A stretch of 42,558 nt of DNA from an uncultured bacterium (GTDB lineage Bacteria > Vulcanimicrobiota > Vulcanimicrobiia > Vulcanimicrobiales > Vulcanimicrobiaceae), in NCBI GenBank assembly GCA_903829325.1, contig CAIKPM010000013.1:1-42558 (forward strand), written 5' to 3'. The notes under the pieces were generated by a model, which saw nothing but the letters and a program-made list of their open reading frames with translations, was not told the DNA's origin and did no database searches. Shown piece by piece: positions 21,926 to 42,558 of the stretch (within the stretch, counting starts at the first letter, position 1; each line of letters starts with the position of its first letter). The position numbers were made by a program, and so were the translations under genes.

Positions 21926-22543
21926 ATGGGGAACAAAGACGGAATCAGCTGGGCCACAGACGCCATGCTGGCCTGCAATGATCGACTTGAGGTGGCAAAC
22001 CAAAATCTTGCCAATGCCTCGAGCCGTGATTTTCACAAAATTCTCGAGCGGATTGTGATGACACCCAACGGCCTGGCTGCGGTGCATACCCAGACAACGG
22101 GGGCCGGGCCACAACGCTCCACGGGGCGCCCGCTTGATTTGGTGATCGATGGCGAGGGTGGCTTCCGCGTGACCGACCCGTCTACCGGTGCCGTCAGCGA
22201 AACCCGCAACGGCTCGTTCAGTCGCGATAAAGAGGGCTATTTGGTCGATCCCACTGGCAAGCGATTATTGGCCGATACCGGCATGGTCAAAGTGAGTTCT
22301 GATCAAGTCCATGTGCGTGCGGATGGTTCGATTTTCGATGCTGGAAAACTCGTGGGCAAAATTGGCTTGCAGCCCGGAACCTTGGTACGTAGCGGGTTTA
22401 TCGAAATTTCTAATGTTGACTCCGCAGAGATGATGATTCAAGTTATCGATGCGCAGCGCAGTTTTGAAACTGCGGAAAAAGCTCTGAGCTCAATCGACTC
22501 AGCACGTCAGAAGATGGCCAACGAGGTCGCGAGGTTAAAATGA
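21926..22543 (+). CDS. flgF: Flagellar basal-body rod protein, FlgF-like
   Basis: This is a proximal-rod/hook-basal family protein of 205 residues. The N-terminal rod motif is LEVANQNLANASSRDFHKIL (normally ANNLANxxTxGFK). The middle has the DLVIDGEGGFRVTDPSTGAVSETRNGSFSRDKEGYLVDPTGKRLL block typical of FlgF/FlgG. The C-terminal helix VIDAQRSFETAEKALSSIDSARQKM pairs with the N-terminal helix in the rod. It is shorter than FlgF in E. coli (251). Its stop overlaps the flgG-like start (ATGA), so the two are coupled. It is exported by the flagellar type III system. Confidence 0.85.
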   Translation: MGNKDGISWATDAMLACNDRLEVANQNLANASSRDFHKILERIVMTPNGLAAVHTQTTGAGPQRSTGRPLDLVIDGEGGFRVTDPSTGAVSETRNGSFSRDKEGYLVDPTGKRLLADTGMVKVSSDQVHVRADGSIFDAGKLVGKIGLQPGTLVRSGFIEISNVDSAEMMIQVIDAQRSFETAEKALSSIDSARQKMANEVARLK

Positions 22544-23256
22544 ATCGTGCAATGATTTCCGCCGCGTCGGGCATGTCCATGGAAGAAGCCAATCTCGAAC
22601 AAATCAGCGAAAATGTTGCCAACGCCGATAATCCCAGCTATAAAGCGAGCAATACCTGGTTTTCGGCGTTATCGTCGGGCTTGGGCGCGACGATTGGGGG
22701 AACTCGGCTTGATTTGACCCAGGGAAAGCTGCAAAAAAGTGGCGGACCCTTCGATTTGGCGATCAACGGCAGTGGCTTCTTTAAAGTAGTTGCACCTAAT
22801 GGCGATCTGGCGTATTCGCGCTTAGGTGATTTTTCGCGGACGGCTGATGGGAAAATGCAAAATGGCCAAGGCTGTACCTTGGTTGGGGTCAATTTGCCGG
22901 CGAACGCGAGCGATGTCACCGTCCTGGGTGATGGCACGATTCAAGCCACGCTCGACGGTCACAAAAACTTTACGATTGGCCACATCACTCTAGCAACGTT
23001 TGCTGCTCCTGAGCAGTTACGACAAGGGGGAGTGAAGGGGATTTTTACACCCACTGCTGATTCCGGTCCAGCACTCGATCTGCGGCCTGGTGGTGAGACC
23101 AAAATTGCGTTTGGGATGTTAGAGAAATCAAATATCTCGATTGTTGAATCAATGCTCGCAATGCTCGCTGCTCAGCGCGCGTACGAGGCGGATAGTAAAG
23201 GAGTGCAATCGGCCGATGAAATGCTCCGCATCGCAAACAGCCTCCAAAAGAGCTGA
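22540..23256 (+). CDS. flgG: Flagellar basal-body rod protein FlgG
   Basis: This 238-residue protein matches the distal rod family. It has the N-terminal ISAASGMSMEEANLEQISENVANADNPSYKA, the central block LAINGSGFFKVVAPNGDLAYSRLGDFSRTADGKMQNGQGC, and the C-terminal coiled-coil IVESMLAMLAAQRAYEADSKGVQSADEMLRIAN. It is short for FlgG (about 260), so FlgF versus FlgG (FlhO/FlhP in Bacillus terms) cannot be fully separated. It overlaps flgF by four bases at its start and flgJ by 41 bases at its end. It forms the axial rod of the flagellum. Confidence 0.85.
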   Translation: MNRAMISAASGMSMEEANLEQISENVANADNPSYKASNTWFSALSSGLGATIGGTRLDLTQGKLQKSGGPFDLAINGSGFFKVVAPNGDLAYSRLGDFSRTADGKMQNGQGCTLVGVNLPANASDVTVLGDGTIQATLDGHKNFTIGHITLATFAAPEQLRQGGVKGIFTPTADSGPALDLRPGGETKIAFGMLEKSNISIVESMLAMLAAQRAYEADSKGVQSADEMLRIANSLQKS

Positions 23257-23476: not shown

Positions 23477-24343
23477 ATGGGAATGCTCTTTGCCTCAAAG
23501 GCCTTTAATAACAAGCGGAAAGCCGCCGTTGGAGTTTCTCCAATGGGTAATTCAACCTACGATAAACATTCGGTGTGGCAACACCTCGAGCGTGAAGTCG
23601 CGGGTGAAGAAGCTTTTGCTGCGGATTCGGCTATCGATTTTCCAGCGGTGGCAGAATTAACGGAAGCACAGAAGCTGGAGTTGCGTAATGATCGCATTCA
23701 GCAATTGTATCCACTTGTGAAATCGGTGGCGCGTCGTGTGGCGCGTGCCTATCCAAAAGCTGATGTCGAAGAGCTGATTAGCGATGGCTGCGTGGGCCTC
23801 ATTCGCGCGGTTGATTTGTTCGATCCGACGCGTGGAGTGGTGATTGAGGCGTATGCCCGGCGCTTGATCATCGGCGCGATTTTTAATGGTTTGCGCAAGC
23901 GAGACCCGCTCACGAGTCGGGTGCGTCGCGCGTTGCGCGAGACTGAAGAAGAACGCTACCGGATTGCGGCTGATCGGGGCACCATGCCAACGATGGTTGA
24001 AATGGAGCAGCGCGATAAAAAATTGAGCGCGGTGCGCACGAAAGCGATGCAGCGTTCGGTTGTTTCTTTGGATGCGCCCTTGCCGAGTGGCGTGACGATC
24101 GGTGCCTCAAACGAAAAAGATCCCGAGACGATTGCAGTCGAGCGGACGCTAATTACGGCTGCATTGACGGCGATTAATACCTTGCCTGCTCGTCAACGCG
24201 AGGTTATGATGTTATACTACATGGGCCAGGTGCCCTTACCGGCGATTGCGCAAAAACTTGGCGTTACTCGTCAGCGGGCTTCGCAAATTCATCGCGAAGC
24301 CCTTAAATCCGTAACCGACTATATTAACACCCACCCTTATTAA
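23477..24343 (+). CDS. fliA: Flagellar sigma factor (sigma-28/FliA/WhiG type)
   Basis: This is an alternative sigma factor of the flagellar class. Region 2 is at about residues 70-140 (YPLVKSVARRVARAYPKADVEELISDGCVGLIRAVDLFDPTRG). The intervening region 3 carries RRALRETEEERYRIAADRGTMPTMVEM. Region 4 with the helix-turn-helix is LPARQREVMMLYYMGQVPLPAIAQKLGVTRQRASQIHREAL. Members normally transcribe late flagellar genes. The start is uncertain: ATG 23477 has no clear ribosome site, while ATG 23543 has GGAG eight bases upstream and loses only a non-conserved tail. It lies six bases after flgJ. No anti-sigma FlgM is recognised, though the next gene is a possible partner. Confidence 0.85.
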   Translation: MGMLFASKAFNNKRKAAVGVSPMGNSTYDKHSVWQHLEREVAGEEAFAADSAIDFPAVAELTEAQKLELRNDRIQQLYPLVKSVARRVARAYPKADVEELISDGCVGLIRAVDLFDPTRGVVIEAYARRLIIGAIFNGLRKRDPLTSRVRRALRETEEERYRIAADRGTMPTMVEMEQRDKKLSAVRTKAMQRSVVSLDAPLPSGVTIGASNEKDPETIAVERTLITAALTAINTLPARQREVMMLYYMGQVPLPAIAQKLGVTRQRASQIHREALKSVTDYINTHPY

Positions 24344-24431: not shown

Positions 24432-24995
24432 ATGGCACCCGTTGGTAATAATGGACCGTATATTCCACGTATCGACCCGAATGAGCTCGCTGCGAATAAG
24501 CGCTCTTTGGCGTTGCGTGATGCCTCGTCTACGGTGCTGAGTGATGTCACGAACACCCGCAGCAGTCAGCGTAACGGGCAGGTTGATGAGCGCGTTACCG
24601 CGACCCAGGTTGCTTTTGATCCCCTGGCACCACGCGCGAATGATCCTTCGGTTGATTCGATTAGCATCTCGCCAAAAACGCGGCGAGCGATGGAGCAACG
24701 CCGTGCGCAAGGCTACCAGCTGGGTAAACAGCTCAATGCGACCGGGTTTCATCCTAATCACACGCCGACGAGTCAGTATACAGCGGGCAATTGGTCGACC
24801 CAAGGCAATCAGGCTTCGCACCTTGCCAATCCCAATGTGAGCGTCACTCCGGCGGGACTCTATCAAATTACGGCGGCGGTGCCCCCCGAGGCGAACAAAG
24901 TTGCCCCCGTACGACGGGCGGCTCCGCCTCGTAGTGGGCTGCGTCCGCTCACCCCGATCTCGCCGGCCCGCACTCCGCTGACGCTGATGCGCTAG
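24432..24995 (+). CDS. Unknown disordered Pro/Asn/Ser/Thr-rich protein in flagellar block
   Basis: I do not recognise it. Its 187 residues have low complexity, with no predicted membrane segment or signal peptide, and it is rich in Asn, Gln, Pro, Thr and Arg. A short DSISISPKTRRAMEQRR near residue 76 resembles the (D/E)xVxISPEAR motif often seen in small flagellar/secretion-associated proteins. It starts at ATG 24432, 88 bases after the sigma factor and 43 before fliJ, so it belongs to the flagellar cluster. It might be a type III secretion substrate, hook-length or chaperone-like protein, or a FlgM-type anti-sigma factor. None is shown by the sequence. Confidence 0.55.
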   Translation: MAPVGNNGPYIPRIDPNELAANKRSLALRDASSTVLSDVTNTRSSQRNGQVDERVTATQVAFDPLAPRANDPSVDSISISPKTRRAMEQRRAQGYQLGKQLNATGFHPNHTPTSQYTAGNWSTQGNQASHLANPNVSVTPAGLYQITAAVPPEANKVAPVRRAAPPRSGLRPLTPISPARTPLTLMR

Positions 24996-25038: not shown

Positions 25039-25506
25039 GTGGCTCCGTTTCAGTTTAATCTTCAACCCTTGCTTGAGATCCGCGAACGCACCGAAGATGA
25101 GCGCAAGCGTGAGTATGCTGCGGGTCTTGGCGAGCATCGGCGCTATTTGAGCGCGCTGCGTGCCGCCGAGGCCGAGTTACAGCGGAGCCTGCAGAAAATG
25201 CGCGCGAACCAAGTGCGGACCGACCCACGGGCGATCGAGGATGCCTTCGCCGAAGTTGCTTATTTGCGCGAACGTGCCCAGCGGGCGCAAGCCGATGTCG
25301 AGCGTTCGGAGCAGCATGTGGCCGAGCTGCGCGATGCCCTGCTTGAAGCCAGCAAGGAAAAAAATGTGCTGGAGAAGCTCAAAGAGCGTCGTCGCGAGGC
25401 GTATTTGGAGGCGCGTCGCCTGCGTGAGGAGGAGGAAATCGACGATACCAACGTCATTCGTACGAGTAATGCGGCGACTTTACGGCGCGAACACGAAAAT
25501 TTGTGA
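25039..25506 (+). CDS. fliJ: Flagellar export protein FliJ
   Basis: FliJ is the coiled-coil stalk of the FliI/FliH ATPase complex in flagellar type III export. Its 155 residues are almost wholly helical and charged. The family pattern is FQFNLQPLLEIRERTEDERKREYAA at the N-terminus, and EKNVLEKLKERRREAYLEARRLREEEEIDDTN at the C-terminus. The start is GTG 25039. It is close to the flagellar rod and sigma genes, which supports the call. fliI and fliH are not in the window. Confidence 0.75.
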   Translation: MAPFQFNLQPLLEIRERTEDERKREYAAGLGEHRRYLSALRAAEAELQRSLQKMRANQVRTDPRAIEDAFAEVAYLRERAQRAQADVERSEQHVAELRDALLEASKEKNVLEKLKERRREAYLEARRLREEEEIDDTNVIRTSNAATLRREHENL

Positions 25507-25629
25507 TATTTGTCGTAATGATGCAGGGGGTAAGGCCCCTATGTAACGAAATTGAGTTTTGGAAAGGCAATTGTCGAAAAATTTTTTGACACCGCCTTTT
25601 TTCTAACAGAACTTGTGGAGATTATGAGC

Positions 25630-26403
25630 ATGCTTGAGAATGTGTCGCCTCGTTCAACGACTGAATCGCCTACCGTCTTATTGGTACGAAGCGAGCATGC
25701 GGCCTATCGTGAATTGGCTGATCGTCTCCAGGTTGAAGATTTCGCGGTGACTCAAGCAGCCGATGGACGCGAGTTGCTCGTGACCGCGCGCGAATCGCGT
25801 TTTGATATGATCATCATCGATATGGTGATGCCGGGGGTCGATGGCTTGTCGGTCTTGCGGACGCTGCGTAATGCGAATATTTGGACGCCCACCCTGGTGT
25901 ATGCCACCCAGAGTTCCGAGATCGATTGCATGCTGGCATTCGAATTGGGCGCGGATGATTTCGTGGTTGCCCCGCGTTCGGATCGCGAGCTGGTGTCTCG
26001 GATTCGGGCTATTTTACGGAGAGTCACTGGGGTTGCTTCATCGGTTGCAGCGGCGCCGGTTACCGCTTCGACCCGGACCCTCAAGTACGGCAGTCTCGAA
26101 ATAGATGAAGATGCCCGCGACGCGCGTGTGAATGGTGAGCCGTTGCAGCTGCGCCCACGCGAATTTGCTTTGTTGCTGGCCTTAGCCAAGCAGCCAGGGG
26201 TCGCGCTTTCGCGCAAGACCCTGGTTGATCGCGTGTGGGGCTATGATTATTTCGGCGATGAGCGTACGGTCGACAATCATGTTCGCCAAATTCGGGCCAA
26301 ACTCGAAGCCCACCCAACTTCGCCTTCGCCAGTCCGTACGATCTACGGCTTCGGCTATCGCTTCGAACCCGCGCAAGCCGCTCGCCCAGCGCAGGCGATC
26401 TAG
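25630..26403 (+). CDS. OmpR/PhoB-type response regulator with degenerate receiver
   Basis: The receiver domain (about residues 10-130) is followed by a winged-helix DNA-binding domain (SLEIDEDARDARVNGEPLQLRPREFALLLALAKQPGVALSRKTLVDRVWGYDYFGDERTVDNHVRQIRAKL). The phosphoacceptor Asp is present (MIIIDMVMPGVDG). The other canonical residues are changed: the acidic pair in the first strand is Arg-Ser (LLVRSEH), the conserved Thr after strand 4 is Ala (VYATQ), and the conserved Lys after strand 5 is Ala (VVAPRSDREL). Phosphorylation control is therefore doubtful. ATG 25630 is preferred because GGAG lies nine bases upstream (ATG 25624 is too close). No histidine kinase is adjacent. Its stop is seven bases from the convergent gene that follows. 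Confidence 0.85.
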   Translation: MLENVSPRSTTESPTVLLVRSEHAAYRELADRLQVEDFAVTQAADGRELLVTARESRFDMIIIDMVMPGVDGLSVLRTLRNANIWTPTLVYATQSSEIDCMLAFELGADDFVVAPRSDRELVSRIRAILRRVTGVASSVAAAPVTASTRTLKYGSLEIDEDARDARVNGEPLQLRPREFALLLALAKQPGVALSRKTLVDRVWGYDYFGDERTVDNHVRQIRAKLEAHPTSPSPVRTIYGFGYRFEPAQAARPAQAI

Positions 26404-26409
26404 GCAGAT

Positions 26410-26811
26410 CTAGTTTTTGGAGTAGCGTTGCCGACTGGCGCGGATGATGCGGGTCTTGCCACCGGTCTGGCGTTGATCGGAATCGGCGGATTTCTTTGCC
26501 AGATCGAGCGCAAACGACGTGAGGGCTGCTTCGGGGCCGAAATCTTCGGAAAGTGCGTCGAAGTAGCTGACGACTAGCTCCATATCAAGCGCCGCTTGCT
26601 GTAAGGCTGCAGGGTCGTGTTTGGGGCTGGTGGTGAGCCGTTCGATCGCTTGCTGCACCGCTTCCTCGTCGATGGCTGTTGTGTTTGCTGGGCTAGCGAA
26701 CGAGCTGCGCGTTTTGCGCGGTGCCGGCGCAGCGCTATAGGCGTACATGGAGGCCGGGTTGAGGAGCGCAGGTCCGGTGAGGTAGGCGCCGGCGGTATAT
26801 GGGCGTTGCAT
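26410..26811 (-). CDS. Unknown 133-residue protein
   Basis: This protein is unrecognised. The N-terminal third is Pro/Ala/Tyr-rich and probably disordered (YTAGAYLTGPALLNPASMYAYSAAP). The middle is helical and acidic (AIDEEAVQQAIERL, DPAALQQAALDMELVVSYFDALSEDFG), and the end is basic. There is no signal peptide or membrane segment. ATG 26811 has AGGAAG 10 bases upstream. It converges on the response regulator and is divergent from the unknown cluster at 27-31 kb. Its N-terminus has the same Gly/Tyr/Pro flavour as the first protein of that cluster, a weak hint of a common export or assembly route. Confidence 0.5.
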   Translation of the reverse strand: MQRPYTAGAYLTGPALLNPASMYAYSAAPAPRKTRSSFASPANTTAIDEEAVQQAIERLTTSPKHDPAALQQAALDMELVVSYFDALSEDFGPEAALTSFALDLAKKSADSDQRQTGGKTRIIRASRQRYSKN

Positions 26812-27073: not shown

Positions 27074-27223
27074 ATGTCGATGACATCGATTGCCGCAGCT
27101 GTCAAGCGCGCCTCATCGGATTGTCTCGTCATGTGCGGCCCGATGTGCTGCTGTTGTCTCTGTATGCTGCGCACCGTCGCGGACGTGTGCGCACCCTTCT
27201 CTCGAGCTGTGCGCTCGAGCTAG
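27074..27223 (+). CDS. 49-residue cysteine-rich peptide
   Basis: This ORF of 49 codons plus TAG has eight cysteines, clustered as CLVMCGPMCCCCLC at residues 17-30, with one more at 39. The N-terminal segment is short and weakly amphipathic (MSMTSIAAAVKRASSD), and the C-terminal end is basic. The ATG at 27074 has AAAGGA (27059-27064) nine bases upstream, a good ribosome site. No protein family is recognised. Candidate ideas are a metal-binding or lipid-modified peptide or a RiPP precursor. No maturation enzyme is seen nearby. It lies 132 bases before the first of five unknown membrane proteins on the same strand, which suggests, without proof, a shared role. Confidence 0.5.
   Translation: MSMTSIAAAVKRASSDCLVMCGPMCCCCLCMLRTVADVCAPFSRAVRSS
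27201..27219 (+). repeat. Perfect hairpin at the end of the Cys-rich ORF
   Basis: CTCGAGC (27201-27207) and GCTCGAG (27213-27219) form a perfect 7-bp stem with a 5-base loop just before the stop codon. The same region has a second longer-range inverted repeat, GGCGTAGC at 27261-27268 and GCTACGCC at 27297-27304. Either may be an mRNA structure in the leader of the downstream operon. Confidence 0.4.
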
Positions 27224-27355
27224 AGCACTACTCGCAAACCCTTGAGCGCCATATCTCGTTGGCGTAGCGTGCATCGCGCGTATCGATCGTAAATTTGCTA
27301 CGCCGCTCTGCCAGCTCCGGGGCTTGCTGTTGAGGATCACAGGAACACAACCTAC

Positions 27356-28249
27356 ATGGCCATTACTGGCGTCGCCCCGTTGTATTCGGGGTACAGCGGA
27401 CCCCCGGCCAACTCGCCTCCTGCGTGGACGCAGACGAGTGTCTTCCCTGCGGGACTGGGTTCGGATTCGATCGGCCCGTCGGGTTCGGCGCAAGAAGGCG
27501 TTGCTGTTCCGCTGTTGTCCAATATGGCCCCGAACGATGCGACGTACGCGGCGAAGCATCCGGACACGCACCTCGATGGCATGAAGGCGATTGCGCTTCT
27601 TGGTGCGGTCATCTCTGGTTTAGCGGTAGTGTTGGTGCCTTTGCTCATGGAAATTCGTGAGACGCGGGGCAAGACGAAAGCCGAGCTCCAGCGTGAGAAT
27701 TTTGTGCATATCATTACCAACGCATCCCGTGCGACGAAAGACCCTTCGGTTGAGTGGGTGCACTCGTTGGAAGCGACCGGCAAAGAAAATATTGATGCCG
27801 TCGTGTCAGAGGGCTTGGCCAGGCTCATGCTCGATGCGTGGGGTACGGCGCGTTCTGCGCCTGCCGACTCTGCACAGTATCAGCAGGCTAAGACACTGCT
27901 CTCGCAGTTGCAAGCCCCGGTGAAAGAAGTTGGCGGAAAGCTGGTGCTTGAGGAAGGGATGATCCACCCCGTCGAAGTCCTCGCTCCCTCGGCTGGCACG
28001 GCGATTACCCATCTCTATACCAATTATTTAGCGCAGCTCAAGCAACGCAATGCGATGGACGGTGATAACGGGCGCTTGGTCCAGATGCAAGCCCAACACT
28101 ATTTGGACAGTGTATCTGGGGTGGGCAATAGGGCCGGCTTCTTGCAAGAAGGGCAGCGCTTGGCTGCGCGATCGGTTGACTACATTCAGAAGCTGCAAAA
28201 GTTACACGCGCTTGCGAAGCAGCATTTTATCAACTGGGTGGTGGCGTAA
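27356..28249 (+). CDS. Unknown membrane protein A of five-gene cluster
   Basis: Not recognised. There are 297 residues with no N-terminal signal peptide. Residues 1-60 are Gly/Pro/Ser-rich and probably flexible (PLYSGYSGPPANSPPAW). One hydrophobic helix lies at about 77-98 (KAIALLGAVISGLAVVLVPLLM), followed by a long, soluble, mainly helical C-terminal domain with Gln/Lys-rich segments. AGGAAC lies 9-11 bases upstream of ATG 27356. The stop overlaps the next gene's start (TAATG), so the pair is translationally coupled. Topology by charge would place the C-terminal domain in the cytoplasm. Function unknown. Confidence 0.6.
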   Translation: MAITGVAPLYSGYSGPPANSPPAWTQTSVFPAGLGSDSIGPSGSAQEGVAVPLLSNMAPNDATYAAKHPDTHLDGMKAIALLGAVISGLAVVLVPLLMEIRETRGKTKAELQRENFVHIITNASRATKDPSVEWVHSLEATGKENIDAVVSEGLARLMLDAWGTARSAPADSAQYQQAKTLLSQLQAPVKEVGGKLVLEEGMIHPVEVLAPSAGTAITHLYTNYLAQLKQRNAMDGDNGRLVQMQAQHYLDSVSGVGNRAGFLQEGQRLAARSVDYIQKLQKLHALAKQHFINWVVA

Positions 28250-29163
28250 TGAGTGTGGCTGCAGTGCCACCGCGATTCTCGGCGCACGGCGTCGGGATTA
28301 ATCTCAAAACCGGTTATTTAATCCCATCGCTTCGTGACGGGGTGATCCGCCGGATGAATGCGGTTGAGGCGACGCGCGTCGCGATCGCTAAACAGCGCGC
28401 AGCCGGTGTAAAGGTGCAAGTACCGGAGTCCGCAGCAGAGGCGCTGCGCTTGCCCAATCTGGTCGAAGGCACATGCGAGGCGCCTCGCAATGCTGCTGAG
28501 ATTGAGGCTTTGCTCAAGCGCCTTCAAACCAAGCAGGCGAACGAAGATACCCCAGCGTTGGTGCTGGATGTACTCGTGTCGGCTGAGCAACTGAATTTAA
28601 TCCATCCGGGTGTTGGGGTGCATTTCCCTCACCTGCATCCTAATCAACCTGGCTTGTCGACTGGTAGTGCAGAAGATAAGAAAAAAATTCGGGTGATTTG
28701 GAAATATCGTGCACCGGTGAAGGGTGAGATTCATCCGGAGAAGCTTGAGTTTACTGATGGCCGTTTGACTGCTGCGTGGTTGACGTCTGAAGAAGCTGGT
28801 TTACCGAAGGGTACTCTGGACGAGTTTCATCGTCATACCGCGCGTTCGATTGATTTTCTCTTTGGTCATGAGGGGGCATTTACTGAGGGTGCAGCGCGGC
28901 GGCTTCTCAGTGGGATGCTATACCGCTACAAGTCGTATTTCATCGGACTCAAAGAAGGCTTGACTGATCCTCGTTTCAACGGCCGCATTGCTGCGAATTT
29001 GTTGGTGAACAGTCTGCCGCTTTCGGCTGCGTTGTATGCGATTTTCTACGGAGTCGACTACGAGTTAACGAAGCATGAAAATAACAAAGTCGATAAACAG
29101 CCTAATGCGAACTTGCCATATCCGGTAACCTATACCAACGCGAGTGTCGCGCTCACTACGTAG
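28249..29163 (+). CDS. Unknown membrane-associated protein B of five-gene cluster
   Basis: Not recognised. There are 304 residues beginning MSVAAVPPRFSAHGVGINLK with no signal peptide. The large middle part is soluble and mixed alpha/beta, with a His-rich stretch (VHFPHLHPN) near residue 125. A hydrophobic helix lies at about 247-268 (NLLVNSLPLSAALYAIFYG), close to the end, and is followed by a polar tail. It could be a tail-anchored or reentrant protein. Its start overlaps gene A and it is followed by a 118-base gap without genes. Confidence 0.6.
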   Translation: MSVAAVPPRFSAHGVGINLKTGYLIPSLRDGVIRRMNAVEATRVAIAKQRAAGVKVQVPESAAEALRLPNLVEGTCEAPRNAAEIEALLKRLQTKQANEDTPALVLDVLVSAEQLNLIHPGVGVHFPHLHPNQPGLSTGSAEDKKKIRVIWKYRAPVKGEIHPEKLEFTDGRLTAAWLTSEEAGLPKGTLDEFHRHTARSIDFLFGHEGAFTEGAARRLLSGMLYRYKSYFIGLKEGLTDPRFNGRIAANLLVNSLPLSAALYAIFYGVDYELTKHENNKVDKQPNANLPYPVTYTNASVALTT

Positions 29164-29281
29164 CGTTGAGTCTAAATGCTTAGTGGGCTAGGTTGCCAGG
29201 TTGGCCTGTGGGGACATAACCCTTATGCGGGGTAGCTCTTCAGCGAGGTGTCCTGACGTACTCACTTGAGAAGGTGTCGCG

Positions 29282-30001
29282 ATGACGATATTTCCGGGCT
29301 ACCACGAAGTTGTGCCGCCGGGTTATGAGCAGTGGTTTATCAATGATCCGAGCAAAAATTTTGGCGGCATCTTCGAAGTCACGCGTGACAAAAACCTGGG
29401 CATGGTTAAGCATGGGAGCGTGATACTTGGCCGTTTGCGTGAGAGTAATCTCTTGGCGAAAACCCCCAAGGCTGATCTCGATCTCGTGTCTTATCATAAT
29501 TTTTTGGAGAGCAATCCTCAAGTCTTGTACTACGCCCGGTTTTCCGATTTACGGCGCTTGCCGCGGAGTGTGTGGGCGAGTCTCGAGTCCAGCTTTTCGC
29601 GGACCCGCGATGATGCGCGGGCTACTATGGCGGCGGTCGCGGCGGAACTGCGTGTAGCCCAGCGCAAGCTTGAGCAGACGTCTGATGCTACGGAGCGTAA
29701 CGCGCTTGAGAGCAAGATCAATGAGTTGGAGACGAAACATATTGGTTGTAGCGAGTGTCAGGCGGTTGCTCAGGAATACGTTCAGCTGGTGGGGATGGCG
29801 CGTGCGTTGACGCAGCATCCTTCGTATCGTTGGATTGGGCGTCGGACACCGGGGTGGGTTTTTACGCATATCCCTGCGTTTGTGGGTGGGTTTATGATGT
29901 TGATTATGGTGGCGACGCTACCGATGCAGATCGACGGGATGCGTCAGTGGGTCGACCAATATCGCCACCCGCAGGGGGACCCAAGCCAAGCCACAAGCTA
30001 A
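29282..30001 (+). CDS. Unknown coiled-coil membrane protein C of five-gene cluster
   Basis: Not recognised. There are 239 residues with an unstructured or beta-rich first third (MTIFPGYHEVVPPGYEQWFIND), then a charged coiled coil at about 105-150 (RVAQRKLEQTSDATERNALESKINELETK), a CSEC motif near residue 156, and a transmembrane helix at about 192-217 (HIPAFVGGFMMLIMVATLPM). The tail is short and Pro/Gln-rich. GAGAAGGTG lies just upstream of ATG 29282. It is followed by a strong terminator hairpin (30065-30131), so genes A to C probably form one transcript. Confidence 0.6.
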   Translation: MTIFPGYHEVVPPGYEQWFINDPSKNFGGIFEVTRDKNLGMVKHGSVILGRLRESNLLAKTPKADLDLVSYHNFLESNPQVLYYARFSDLRRLPRSVWASLESSFSRTRDDARATMAAVAAELRVAQRKLEQTSDATERNALESKINELETKHIGCSECQAVAQEYVQLVGMARALTQHPSYRWIGRRTPGWVFTHIPAFVGGFMMLIMVATLPMQIDGMRQWVDQYRHPQGDPSQATS

Positions 30002-30064
30002 TCCGCGTCCGCGGATTGAATCAAAGGTCCTAATATCGCCCGAAACCGCTTGCTGTCATCATCG

Positions 30065-30131
30065 CTCGAGACATTATATAAATGAGCCCCTTCTATTAAA
30101 TCAGGCTCAAATGTCTCGAGTTTTTATTTTT
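30065..30131 (+). terminator. Long bipartite hairpin with T-tract
   Basis: The outer arms CTCGAGACAT (30065-30074) and ATGTCTCGAG (30111-30120) are perfect over 10 bases. The inner arms TGAGCC (30083-30088) and GGCTCA (30104-30109) are perfect over 6. A TTTTTATTTTT run follows at 30121-30131. This fits a rho-independent terminator with an internal bulge, located between genes C and D. It may alternatively act as an attenuator for D. Confidence 0.75.
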
Positions 30132-30156
30132 CGATATAAATATAGTTGGTGATTTT

Positions 30157-30834
30157 ATGGCTTTAGCATCGGTTGCTGAATCGGGTATCAAACGCGCTGA
30201 ATCGGGTATCGAGCACATTAAGGGAAAAGCGACGACGCACTCCGGGGCGGAAAATGCTAACTCGCATACTGCAACTCTTCCAGCTGGTGGTATAGTTCCT
30301 GGTCCGTCTTCGACAGGAACCATACAGGGAGAAGTCGCGAAAACTGGGTTAAATACCGGGCCGGATGAGAGTGCTATTAAGGCGATGACGAAAGAGCAGG
30401 CGTCTAGTGCCTTGGTTGTGCAGCAGCAACGTGTTAGTGATGCTGCTAGTGCGCTTAAAGTTGCACAAGACAGCAAGGATCCGGCGAAAATCGCTGCGGC
30501 TGAAAAAGATTTTGCTCAAGCTCAAGCGACGCAGAAAGCTTTGGAAAGCAAAAGTAAGGGGCTGCTGGGCAAAGTCGGTGATTTTGCAGCCAATCCACTG
30601 GTTGGTATCGGCGCGATGGTTGGGCTGCCGATGGCTCTGAGTGCCTTCACGGGCTCGGGATCAAGTGGTGCTGGCGCTGGATCGGGAGCTTCTGGCAGTG
30701 ATCCCACCGCTGCGGGGAATGCCGCCGCAGGCGGCGCTGCACCGGGAACCTACGGCGGTGCCGCCGCCGGTGGTGGACTTACCTCTGAAATCACCGATCC
30801 GATGAGCGGTCAAAAATTGATGGTAACTGCATAA
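30157..30834 (+). CDS. Unknown coiled-coil/hydrophobic protein D of five-gene cluster
   Basis: Not recognised. There are 225 residues: an N-terminal polar region with a near-repeat (AESGIKRAESGIEHIKGKA), a Gln/Ala/Lys coiled coil at about 85-130 (VVQQQRVSDAASALKVAQD), the motif KGLLGK at 134-139, a hydrophobic segment at about 146-166 (NPLVGIGAMVGLPMALSAFTG), and a 59-residue Gly/Ala/Ser low-complexity tail. There is no signal peptide. Its layout matches gene E downstream (coiled coil, KGLLGK, hydrophobic segment, tail), so D and E look like distant paralogues. ATG 30157 is preceded by GGTGA. Coiled coil plus one hydrophobic stretch is also the outline of some type III translocators, an analogy only. 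Confidence 0.6.
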   Translation: MALASVAESGIKRAESGIEHIKGKATTHSGAENANSHTATLPAGGIVPGPSSTGTIQGEVAKTGLNTGPDESAIKAMTKEQASSALVVQQQRVSDAASALKVAQDSKDPAKIAAAEKDFAQAQATQKALESKSKGLLGKVGDFAANPLVGIGAMVGLPMALSAFTGSGSSGAGAGSGASGSDPTAAGNAAAGGAAPGTYGGAAAGGGLTSEITDPMSGQKLMVTA

Positions 30835-30940
30835 GGCGTGCCGGCAGCGCAACAAGCGTGCATAACCGGGGATGCATAGCTCTAATAAATGATTTAATCC
30901 CTAAACAATATAGCAATAATATAAAGAATGGAATAAATTC

Positions 30941-31579
30941 ATGATCGATTCGATTGCTTACTTACGTGAGCATTGGTTTGGCGAAAAGGGACGTTTTACG
31001 CCCCTGCCTGCTGCTAATGGTGTTACTGCGCAGGCTGACGTCGCCTCCTACCATCTGGACGCGGCGAACAAAGCGCTGATGCCGAGCAATGCGGTTGAGG
31101 CTAGAAAAGCGCTGAGTGGAAAAATCGAAAGTGACGATCAAAGAAAAAGGATTGATACGGACGTAAAGGAGATAAAACAACGCGGTAGCCTAGCAGTTGA
31201 ATCTCATATTTCGTTATTAAAAAGCGAGTATGAAAATTCGGAAAAACTCGCAATGGAAAAAATCTCCGCACATAAAAAGGTCGTTGATAAACTGAAGAAT
31301 GACTCTAACAATACAGCATTGCTCAAAGACAGAGATGAATTGGAAGCAGATATACTCGCAATTGTTAAACAACAAGATGCAATTGTGTATAAGTCTGCGA
31401 AACTCGGTGAAAAAGGTTTGTTGGGAAAATTTGCTGAGAGCAAAAGCCTCGCATTTGTCATGGGCTTAGGGAATGTCTTGATGCTGCCGCTTATGGTTGG
31501 TCCGATGATTGCACAAATGGTCCGAAAACCACCTCCGCCGCCATCCTCGCAAAACGGCTACGCCTCCCCGGCTGCCTAA
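30941..31579 (+). CDS. Unknown coiled-coil/hydrophobic protein E, paralogue of D
   Basis: Not recognised. There are 212 residues, AT-rich compared with its neighbours. Order: an N-terminal mixed region, a long charged coiled coil (about 60-150, SEKLAMEKISAHKKVVDKLKNDSN), KGLLGK at 158-163, a hydrophobic segment at about 169-194 (LAFVMGLGNVLMLPLMVGPM), and a short proline-rich tail PPPPPSSQNGY. It shares KGLLGKxxxFA with gene D. ATG 30941 is preceded by GGAAT. The AT-rich 106-base gap before it may contain its own promoter (none called). A rho-independent terminator follows at 31619. Confidence 0.6.
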   Translation: MIDSIAYLREHWFGEKGRFTPLPAANGVTAQADVASYHLDAANKALMPSNAVEARKALSGKIESDDQRKRIDTDVKEIKQRGSLAVESHISLLKSEYENSEKLAMEKISAHKKVVDKLKNDSNNTALLKDRDELEADILAIVKQQDAIVYKSAKLGEKGLLGKFAESKSLAFVMGLGNVLMLPLMVGPMIAQMVRKPPPPPSSQNGYASPAA

Positions 31580-31618: not shown

Positions 31619-31643
31619 AAAGCCCCTTCGGGGGGCTTTTTTT
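31619..31643 (+). terminator. Rho-independent terminator after gene E
   Basis: AAAGCCCC (31619-31626) pairs with GGGGCTTT (31632-31639) across a TTCGG loop, followed by T-run to 31643. This marks the end of the unknown cluster. Confidence 0.9.
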
Positions 31644-41618: not shown

Positions 41619-42558
41619 CTAAGTAGACGCGTGCGGAGAGTCCGACTCTGCCTGTTCAGATTCAGTCATCTTGAGATTCCACGGCAGCAAGTCTTCGATA
41701 CGTGAAATCGGATGATCCGCAATACGCCGCAGCACTTCTCGCAAGTACGCTTCGGGGTTGATATTATTGAGCTTGGCGCTTCCAATAAGGCTATAAAATG
41801 CCGCTGCACGTTGTCCACCAGCATCACTTCCCGCGAATAAATAATTCTTGCGACCTAAGGCAACACAGCGCAACGCACGCTCCGCCGCATTATTATCAAT
41901 TTCTATCCGTCCGTCATCACAAAAGCGCTCAAGCGCTTTCCAACGCGTCAAGGCATACTGAATGGCCTTTGCAACTTCAACTTTCCGCGAGAGACTTTGC
42001 AGCATTTCATTGAGCCAGATGTGCATCGCATCCAGAATCGGACGACTTCGTGCTTGGCGTGCGGCGCGACGTGCTTCTGCGGATTGCCCGCGGATTTCGC
42101 TTTCAATCAGGTAGAGCGCACCAATTCGTTCAAGCGCCTCTTTGGCAAGAGGAGATTTTTGTGCATGCCCAATATCGAAGAACTTGCGTCGCACATGCGC
42201 CCAACACGCAGCCTCGAGTACCTCGCCATTTTCATAGAGCTTTGAAAATCCCGCATACCCATCGGCCTGAAACACTCCGCGGAACCCCTCCATCTGGCGC
42301 TGTGGATGAATTCCCTTGCGATCAGGCGTGTACGCAAACCATACACCGGGTGCCGCTCCACCTGCAGCAGGCCGCTCATCGCGTACATACGTCCACAAAC
42401 GACCGGTTTTTGTTTTCCCATTTCCTGGAGCAAGTACCGGGATGGGCGTGTCATCTGCGTGCACAACGTCAGCTGCAAAAATATGCGCGCGTAGTGCATC
42501 GATGAGAGGTTGCAACAAAGCCGCACAATTTCCGACCCAATCAGCTAAAAGCGTGCGC
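41619..42558 (-). CDS. tnpC: IS66-family transposase TnpC (5' end beyond window)
   Basis: This is a DDE transposase. The catalytic residues are visible: Asp in VVHADDTPIPVLAPG, Asp in FQADGYAGFSKLY, and Glu in IEIDNNAAERALR. Other IS66 blocks are GRLWTYVRDERP, EAACWAHVRRKFFDIG, YLFAGSDAGGQRAAAFYSLIGSAKLNNINPEAYL and the C-terminal DDMF-type tail. The open frame continues upstream to the window edge (RTLLADWVGNCAAL), so the TTG at 42518 is not the true start. The C-terminus ends at 41619. Confidence 0.92.
   Translation of the reverse strand, partial: RTLLADWVGNCAALLQPLIDALRAHIFAADVVHADDTPIPVLAPGNGKTKTGRLWTYVRDERPAAGGAAPGVWFAYTPDRKGIHPQRQMEGFRGVFQADGYAGFSKLYENGEVLEAACWAHVRRKFFDIGHAQKSPLAKEALERIGALYLIESEIRGQSAEARRAARQARSRPILDAMHIWLNEMLQSLSRKVEVAKAIQYALTRWKALERFCDDGRIEIDNNAAERALRCVALGRKNYLFAGSDAGGQRAAAFYSLIGSAKLNNINPEAYLREVLRRIADHPISRIEDLLPWNLKMTESEQAESDSPHAST

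What the first reader, a model, noticed from the sequence alone, without database searches (positions are those of the whole stretch)
27074..31579. Unrecognised cluster: a Cys-rich peptide gene and five single-hydrophobic-segment proteins
Five co-oriented genes (A-E) have no family I recognise. Each has one hydrophobic segment, no signal peptide, and coiled coils or low-complexity tails (C, D, E) or long helical domains (A, B). They are preceded by a 49-aa peptide gene and bounded by a rho-independent terminator. They lie directly after flagellar genes and sigma-28. Such proteins could form a new membrane complex, or be substrates of a flagellar-type export system (translocator-like layout). 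The link is positional only.
Basis: partly seen in the sequence, partly recalled or inferred. Interest (0 to 1): 0.8.

Follow-up and report, generated by a model that had tools for sequence, protein, structure and literature searches.

The report
Orphan cargo beside flagellum-derived secretion genes
Five protein genes found in no other sequenced relative sit beside spare parts of a flagellum-like export machine that many bacteria of the phylum Vulcanimicrobiota keep without having a flagellum, so they may be what one copy of that machine exports.

Summary
The five genes A-E are real coding genes, each with one hydrophobic segment. They match nothing in Pfam, NCBIfam, PHROGs or PDB sequences, nor any of the other 148 held genomes of the phylum (Vulcanimicrobiota/Eremiobacterota). 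The Cys-rich peptide and the coiled coils were not confirmed. A strong terminator-like hairpin separates C from D.

The genome has a canonical flagellar set on other contigs, plus two sets of a divergent flagellar-type export apparatus ("type 2"). Type 2 occurs in 51 of 61 family genomes; 21 of those lack both FliG and flagellin. The second core set (contig C18) lacks FlgF, FlgG, sigma, FliJ and a response regulator; the window carries exactly these just before A-E.

All five hydrophobic segments share [LV]P[LM] (permutation p about 0.002). A-E are poor in Cys, and their N-termini are rich in S/T/P/N/G.

Best reading: A-E are lineage-specific exported cargo, perhaps membrane-inserting, of that second flagellum-derived system. 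The apparatus is well supported; the cargo role is inferred. No held paper found describes the system. Separateness from known injectisomes is favoured by the FlhA tree but not proven (AU p 0.14).

The parts
21926..22543 (+). FlgF-like rod protein, type-2 lineage
   Evidence: Pfam Flg_bbr_C and LlgE_F_G_D1; NCBIfam FlgEFG subfamily over its cutoff; closest to type-2 loci of relatives
22540..23256 (+). FlgG-like rod protein, type-2 lineage
23477..24343 (+). FliA/WhiG-type sigma factor, divergent; the canonical FliA is on contig C62
   Evidence: NCBIfam FliA_WhiG 118.8 bits, below its 189.6 cutoff, against 252.6 for the C62 copy
24432..24995 (+). X: orphan 187-aa protein, no Cys, S/T/P/N/G-rich N-terminus
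   Evidence: No family; no relative in the family; composition
25039..25506 (+). FliJ-like export protein, second copy in the genome
   Evidence: NCBIfam FliJ 55.8 bits, cutoff 50.45; second copy at C62:18872
25552..26403 (+). OmpR-type response regulator, 50% identical to the one in the G037 type-2 locus
26410..26811 (-). Y: orphan 133-aa protein, no Cys, S/T/P/N/G-rich N-terminus
27074..27223 (+). Cys-rich 49-aa ORF, doubtful gene
   Evidence: Plausible ribosome-binding sequence but negative coding score and no relative
27356..28249 (+). Orphan A, 297 aa; hydrophobic segment 79-97 with VPL; low-charge N-terminal 75 residues
28249..29163 (+). Orphan B, 304 aa; weak hydrophobic segment about 247-269 with LPL
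29282..30001 (+). Orphan C, 239 aa; hydrophobic segment 197-215 with LPM
30064..30121 (+). Terminator-like hairpin followed by TTTTTATTTTT, between C and D
   Evidence: -24.5 kcal/mol, z -5.45 against shuffles
30157..30834 (+). Orphan D, 225 aa; hydrophobic segment 148-166 with LPM, Gly/Ala/Ser tail; weakly like E
30941..31579 (+). Orphan E, 212 aa; hydrophobic segment 172-190 with LPL, Pro-rich tail; GC 0.46
31619..31643 (+). Rho-independent terminator after E
   Evidence: 9-pair stem and T run

Best explanation
The genome carries a canonical flagellar gene set and, separately, two sets of a divergent flagellum-derived export apparatus without its own FliG or filament, here called type 2. The window holds the accessory block of the second set: rod proteins FlgF and FlgG, a FliA-like sigma, FliJ and a response regulator. 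A-E (perhaps with X and Y) are most likely lineage-specific cargo of that set. In this model they are made under the locus's own sigma or regulator, delivered with the help of FliJ and the FliI-like ATPase to the FlhA gate, and threaded out N-terminus first; their proline-bearing hydrophobic segments then insert into a membrane outside, as translocator proteins do. Shown: the apparatus genes, their split between contigs C18 and C13, the lack of FliG and flagellin in 21 type-2 genomes, A-E as orphans, and the shared [LV]P[LM]. Inferred: that the C13 parts work with the C18 core, that A-E are exported, and that they insert into a target membrane.
For: Three FlhA-type proteins in this genome: type 1 on C56, type 2 on C62 and C18. 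The C18 locus holds FlhA, FlhB, FliR, FliQ, FlgC, FliE, FliF-like, FliH, ATPase, lytic transglycosylase, FliM, FliN and FliP but no FlgF, FlgG, sigma, FliJ or regulator; these five are what the window carries. G037, with no FliG or flagellin, has a comparable second set with FlgF, FlgG, sigma and a 50%-identical regulator in one locus, and its C188 FlhA groups with the C18 FlhA (97/93). A-E hydrophobic segments share [LV]P[LM] (12 and 8 of 5000 random sets do as well). A-E N-termini are S/T/P/N/G-rich (p 0.007) and the proteins Cys-poor (p 0.015), stronger with X and Y. Second-set loci elsewhere have different orphan neighbours.
Against: A-E occur in one genome only, so there is no co-inheritance to test. 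Core (C18) and window are on different contigs. Trees of FlgF, FlgG and sigma do not place the window copies with the second sets of G037 and G028. The window FliJ is closest to canonical FliJ of relatives. Composition and motif tests were chosen after reading the sequences. No convincing consensus sigma-28 site before A, C, D or E. No chaperone recognised. Single-sequence structure models were unusable.
Confidence: 0.45

Rival explanations
1. A-E are a lineage-specific inner-membrane complex that stays in the cell: single-pass proteins whose shared proline-bearing segments pack together, acting as an accessory or anchoring part of the second export apparatus rather than its cargo.
For: One hydrophobic segment each with a shared motif; adjacency to apparatus genes; positively charged residues follow the segment in A and E (sequence).
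Against: Low-charge S/T/P/N/G-rich N-termini and low Cys fit export; no other type-2 locus seen has such a complex.
Confidence: 0.22
2. A-E are young or recently acquired genes with no functional link to the neighbouring export genes; the order is accidental.
For: Found in one genome only; D and E have low GC3 (0.45-0.46 against 0.55-0.69 for the neighbours) and coding scores fall from A to E; a terminator-like hairpin splits them; an IS66 transposase lies on the contig.
Against: The shared segment motif and composition suggest that the five belong together and resemble exported proteins; no plasmid, phage or viral relatives.
Confidence: 0.28
3. The window block is part of the canonical flagellum of this organism, and A-E are unusual external flagellar parts replacing the missing flagellin.
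For: The genome has type-1 FlhA and FliG but no detectable Flagellin_N protein; the window FliJ is closest to canonical FliJ of relatives.
Against: FlgF, FlgG and sigma of the window match type-2 loci rather than the canonical set; the genome is 96% complete, so flagellin may simply be missing.
Confidence: 0.05

Closest known systems
Bacterial flagellar type III export apparatus (FlhA/FlhB/FliPQR/FliHIJ with rod proteins)
   Same: Type 2 has the export gate, ATPase, FliE, FlgC, FlgF, FlgG, FliM/FliN-like and FliF-like proteins and a FliA-like sigma; in the FlhA tree it lies next to flagellar FlhA.
   Different: No FliG and no flagellin in 21 genomes that have type 2; FlhA and FliF-like score below the flagellar cutoffs.
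Non-flagellar T3SS (injectisome; SctV/SctU/SctN and others)
   Same: A flagellum-derived export apparatus without motor or filament; SctV, SctU and SctN models match type 2 about as well as the flagellar ones do.
   Different: Keeps recognisable FlgF/FlgG rod proteins and a FliA-like sigma; FlhA is apart from the SctV clade in the best tree, though a joint clade is not rejected (p-AU 0.143).
Myxococcota non-flagellar T3SS
   Same: A non-flagellar T3SS in free-living bacteria; one of two in Myxococcus xanthus acts in prey killing (as reported in PMC12403147).
   Different: Not compared by sequence here.
T3SS translocator proteins (SctE/SctB, for example YopB/YopD)
   Same: Layout only: one or two hydrophobic segments, no Sec leader, helical remainder (from general knowledge).
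   Different: No sequence match in Pfam, NCBIfam or PDB; no chaperone recognised; no coiled coil detected.

Membership tests
Bacterial flagellum (for the type-2 apparatus) | FlhA over the flagellar equivalog cutoff | tested here: not met
   629 bits against a cutoff of 772.1 for the C18 copy; type 1 scores 828.8
Bacterial flagellum (for the type-2 apparatus) | FliG motor protein and flagellin in the same genomes | tested here: not met
   Absent in 21 of 51 genomes with type 2; FliG otherwise goes with the canonical set
Bacterial flagellum (for the type-2 apparatus) | Rod proteins and export gate | tested here: met
   FlgC, FliE (weak), FlgF/FlgG-like; FliP over its cutoff
Non-flagellar T3SS (injectisome) | SctV over its cutoff and inside the SctV clade | tested here: inconclusive
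   510.3 bits against 692.25; outside the SctV clade in the best tree, but a joint clade is not rejected
Non-flagellar T3SS (injectisome) | Secretin, needle and tip proteins | not tested
T3SS translocator (SctE/SctB) for A-E | Sequence match to a translocator family | tested here: not met
T3SS translocator (SctE/SctB) for A-E | Hydrophobic segment, no N-terminal leader | tested here: met
   sequence
T3SS translocator (SctE/SctB) for A-E | Export by the apparatus and insertion into a target membrane | not testable with these tools
   Needs experiments; only composition hints

The most novel reading that the evidence does not exclude
Vulcanimicrobiota turned a flagellum into a secretion machine separately from the known injectisomes, and A-E are the membrane-inserting cargo set of a second copy of that machine, with no sequence relation to any known translocator.
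Probability: 0.25. Interest if true: 0.85.

Novelty: new variant of a known kind. Interest (0 to 1): 0.6.

Why it matters
Injectisomes are usually traced to a conversion of the flagellum (general knowledge; Abby and Rocha, cited in PMC12403147). A conserved flagellum-derived export apparatus in a phylum whose cultured member has no flagella would give another case to compare, and the window shows part of a duplicated set beside what look like its own cargo genes. The cultured Vulcanimicrobium alpinum would make the apparatus testable.

Tried and rejected
Weak E hits in relatives proved to be chance matches to a hydrophobic stretch of AMP-ligase-like proteins. A prophage or plasmid origin of A-E was looked for and not found. 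Consensus sigma-28 sites occur before canonical flagellar operons, but none convincing lies before A, C, D or E. A below-cutoff EAD9 match in C was not believed. AlphaFold without relatives gave unusable models (mean pLDDT 34.6 and 44.8), so no fold search was run. No Rfam RNA in the window. A profile of the five hydrophobic segments found only A-E in the genome. Coiled coils were not supported by a heptad test. Trees of FlgF, FlgG and sigma could not place the window copies.

Full report
What is there. The window is one whole contig (C13) of a 1.89-Mb genome in 70 contigs, 96% complete; no other genome of its genus was found among those held. A-E are intact and coding by codon usage. Each has one hydrophobic segment, weakest in B. 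They match nothing above chance in Pfam, NCBIfam, PHROGs or PDB sequences. They are absent from the other 98 held family genomes and from all other 148 held genomes of the phylum. B has no relative among 84,980 species genomes (a pattern scan that reaches close relatives only). A has none in viral contigs, and A-C none in plasmids or phages. The Cys-rich ORF has a plausible ribosome-binding site but poor codon usage and no relative, so it is left open. A hairpin with z -5.45 and a T tract lies between C and D, and a terminator follows E.

Who it is. A scan with the export-gate protein FlhA named the closest titled relative as Candidatus Eremiobacterota, now Vulcanimicrobiota. One held family genome (G008) has the size reported for Vulcanimicrobium alpinum (3,508,363 bases; 3.50 Mbp in PMC9758169); that G008 is this species is an inference.

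The apparatus. A search of the family for FlhA-type proteins gave two classes of complete matches: type 1 at about 835-880 bits and type 2 at about 610-665 bits. Type 1 passes the flagellar model; type 2 falls short of both the flagellar and the injectisome cutoffs. Counted by hand over, 51 of 61 genomes have type 2, and 21 of these have no type 1, no FliG and no flagellin. FliG and flagellin go with type 1. So type 2 is a flagellum-derived apparatus that is kept without a motor or filament. Its genes include FliF-like, FlgC, FliE, FliH, an ATPase, a lytic transglycosylase, a hook/rod-like protein, FliM, FliN, FliP, FliQ, FliR, FlhB and FlhA (FliH, FliQ and some others by position and similarity to neighbours only). 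In the FlhA tree type 2 is one clade with full support and a long stem, next to flagellar FlhA of Actinobacteria and apart from four SctV sequences. A smaller test could not reject a joint clade with SctV (p-AU 0.143), so a separate origin is favoured, not shown. No held paper describing the system was found. The V. alpinum paper reports no flagella and no flagellin gene, and its text does not mention secretion.

The second set. This genome has type 1 (FlhA on C56; FliF, FliG, FliI, FliJ and FlgE-like genes and a canonical FliA on C62), type 2a (C62:70-80 kb, with FlgF-FlgG-sigma on C58) and type 2b (C18). The C18 locus has the core but no FlgF, FlgG, sigma, FliJ or regulator. The window has precisely FlgF, FlgG, a FliA-like sigma, a second FliJ and a response regulator, followed by A-E. 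In G037, a genome with no FliG or flagellin, a comparable second set lies in one locus: core genes, a 50%-identical regulator, a kinase, FlgF, FlgG and sigma. One of its FlhA proteins, on another contig, is the closest relative of the C18 FlhA (97/93). That the window block serves the C18 core is a reasonable inference, but trees of FlgF, FlgG and sigma do not resolve it, and the window FliJ is closest to canonical FliJ of relatives.

A-E as cargo. Three composition tests, all chosen after reading the sequences, point the same way. All five hydrophobic segments hold [LV]P[LM], which about 10% of hydrophobic segments in the fetched loci do; an equally rare shared pattern arises in 12 or 8 of 5000 random sets. 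The first 40 residues are rich in S/T/P/N/G (p 0.007) and the proteins are poor in Cys (p 0.015); adding X and Y gives 0.0007 and 0.002. A profile of the five segments finds nothing else in the genome. Other second type-2 loci have different, mostly unmatched genes beside them: three very large proteins in G037 and a small protein with a late hydrophobic segment in G028. A conserved machine with changing neighbours is what cargo genes would look like, but chance neighbours look like that too, so the cargo role is held at 0.45.

Verdict. The most interesting result is the phylum's flagellum-derived export apparatus and its second copy here; A-E remain orphans with a testable role.

Noticed in passing
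G000 contigs C56 and C62 (L046, L020, L048): A canonical flagellar gene set with FliG and type-1 FlhA, but no Flagellin_N match anywhere in the genome, unlike nearly all other type-1 genomes.
   Followed up: partly
L035:17922-20000 and L036:28-9315 (G037 contig C198): Three very large proteins follow the second type-2 locus of G037; the first has no Pfam match and two of them are related to each other. Possible cargo of that system.
   Followed up: partly
L044:13938-14697 (G000 contig C18): Two small orphan proteins (about 125 aa each, one Gly-rich) start the FlgC-FliE operon of the second type-2 core; candidates for a needle or cap.
   Followed up: partly
L019 (G000 contig C58) and loci L023, L028, L029, L030: In many relatives the type-2 FlgF-FlgG-sigma genes sit in a conserved cell-division and housekeeping neighbourhood (LGT, SepF, DivIVA, isocitrate/isopropylmalate dehydrogenase).
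   Followed up: no
window 41619-42518: IS66-family transposase at the contig end.
   Followed up: no
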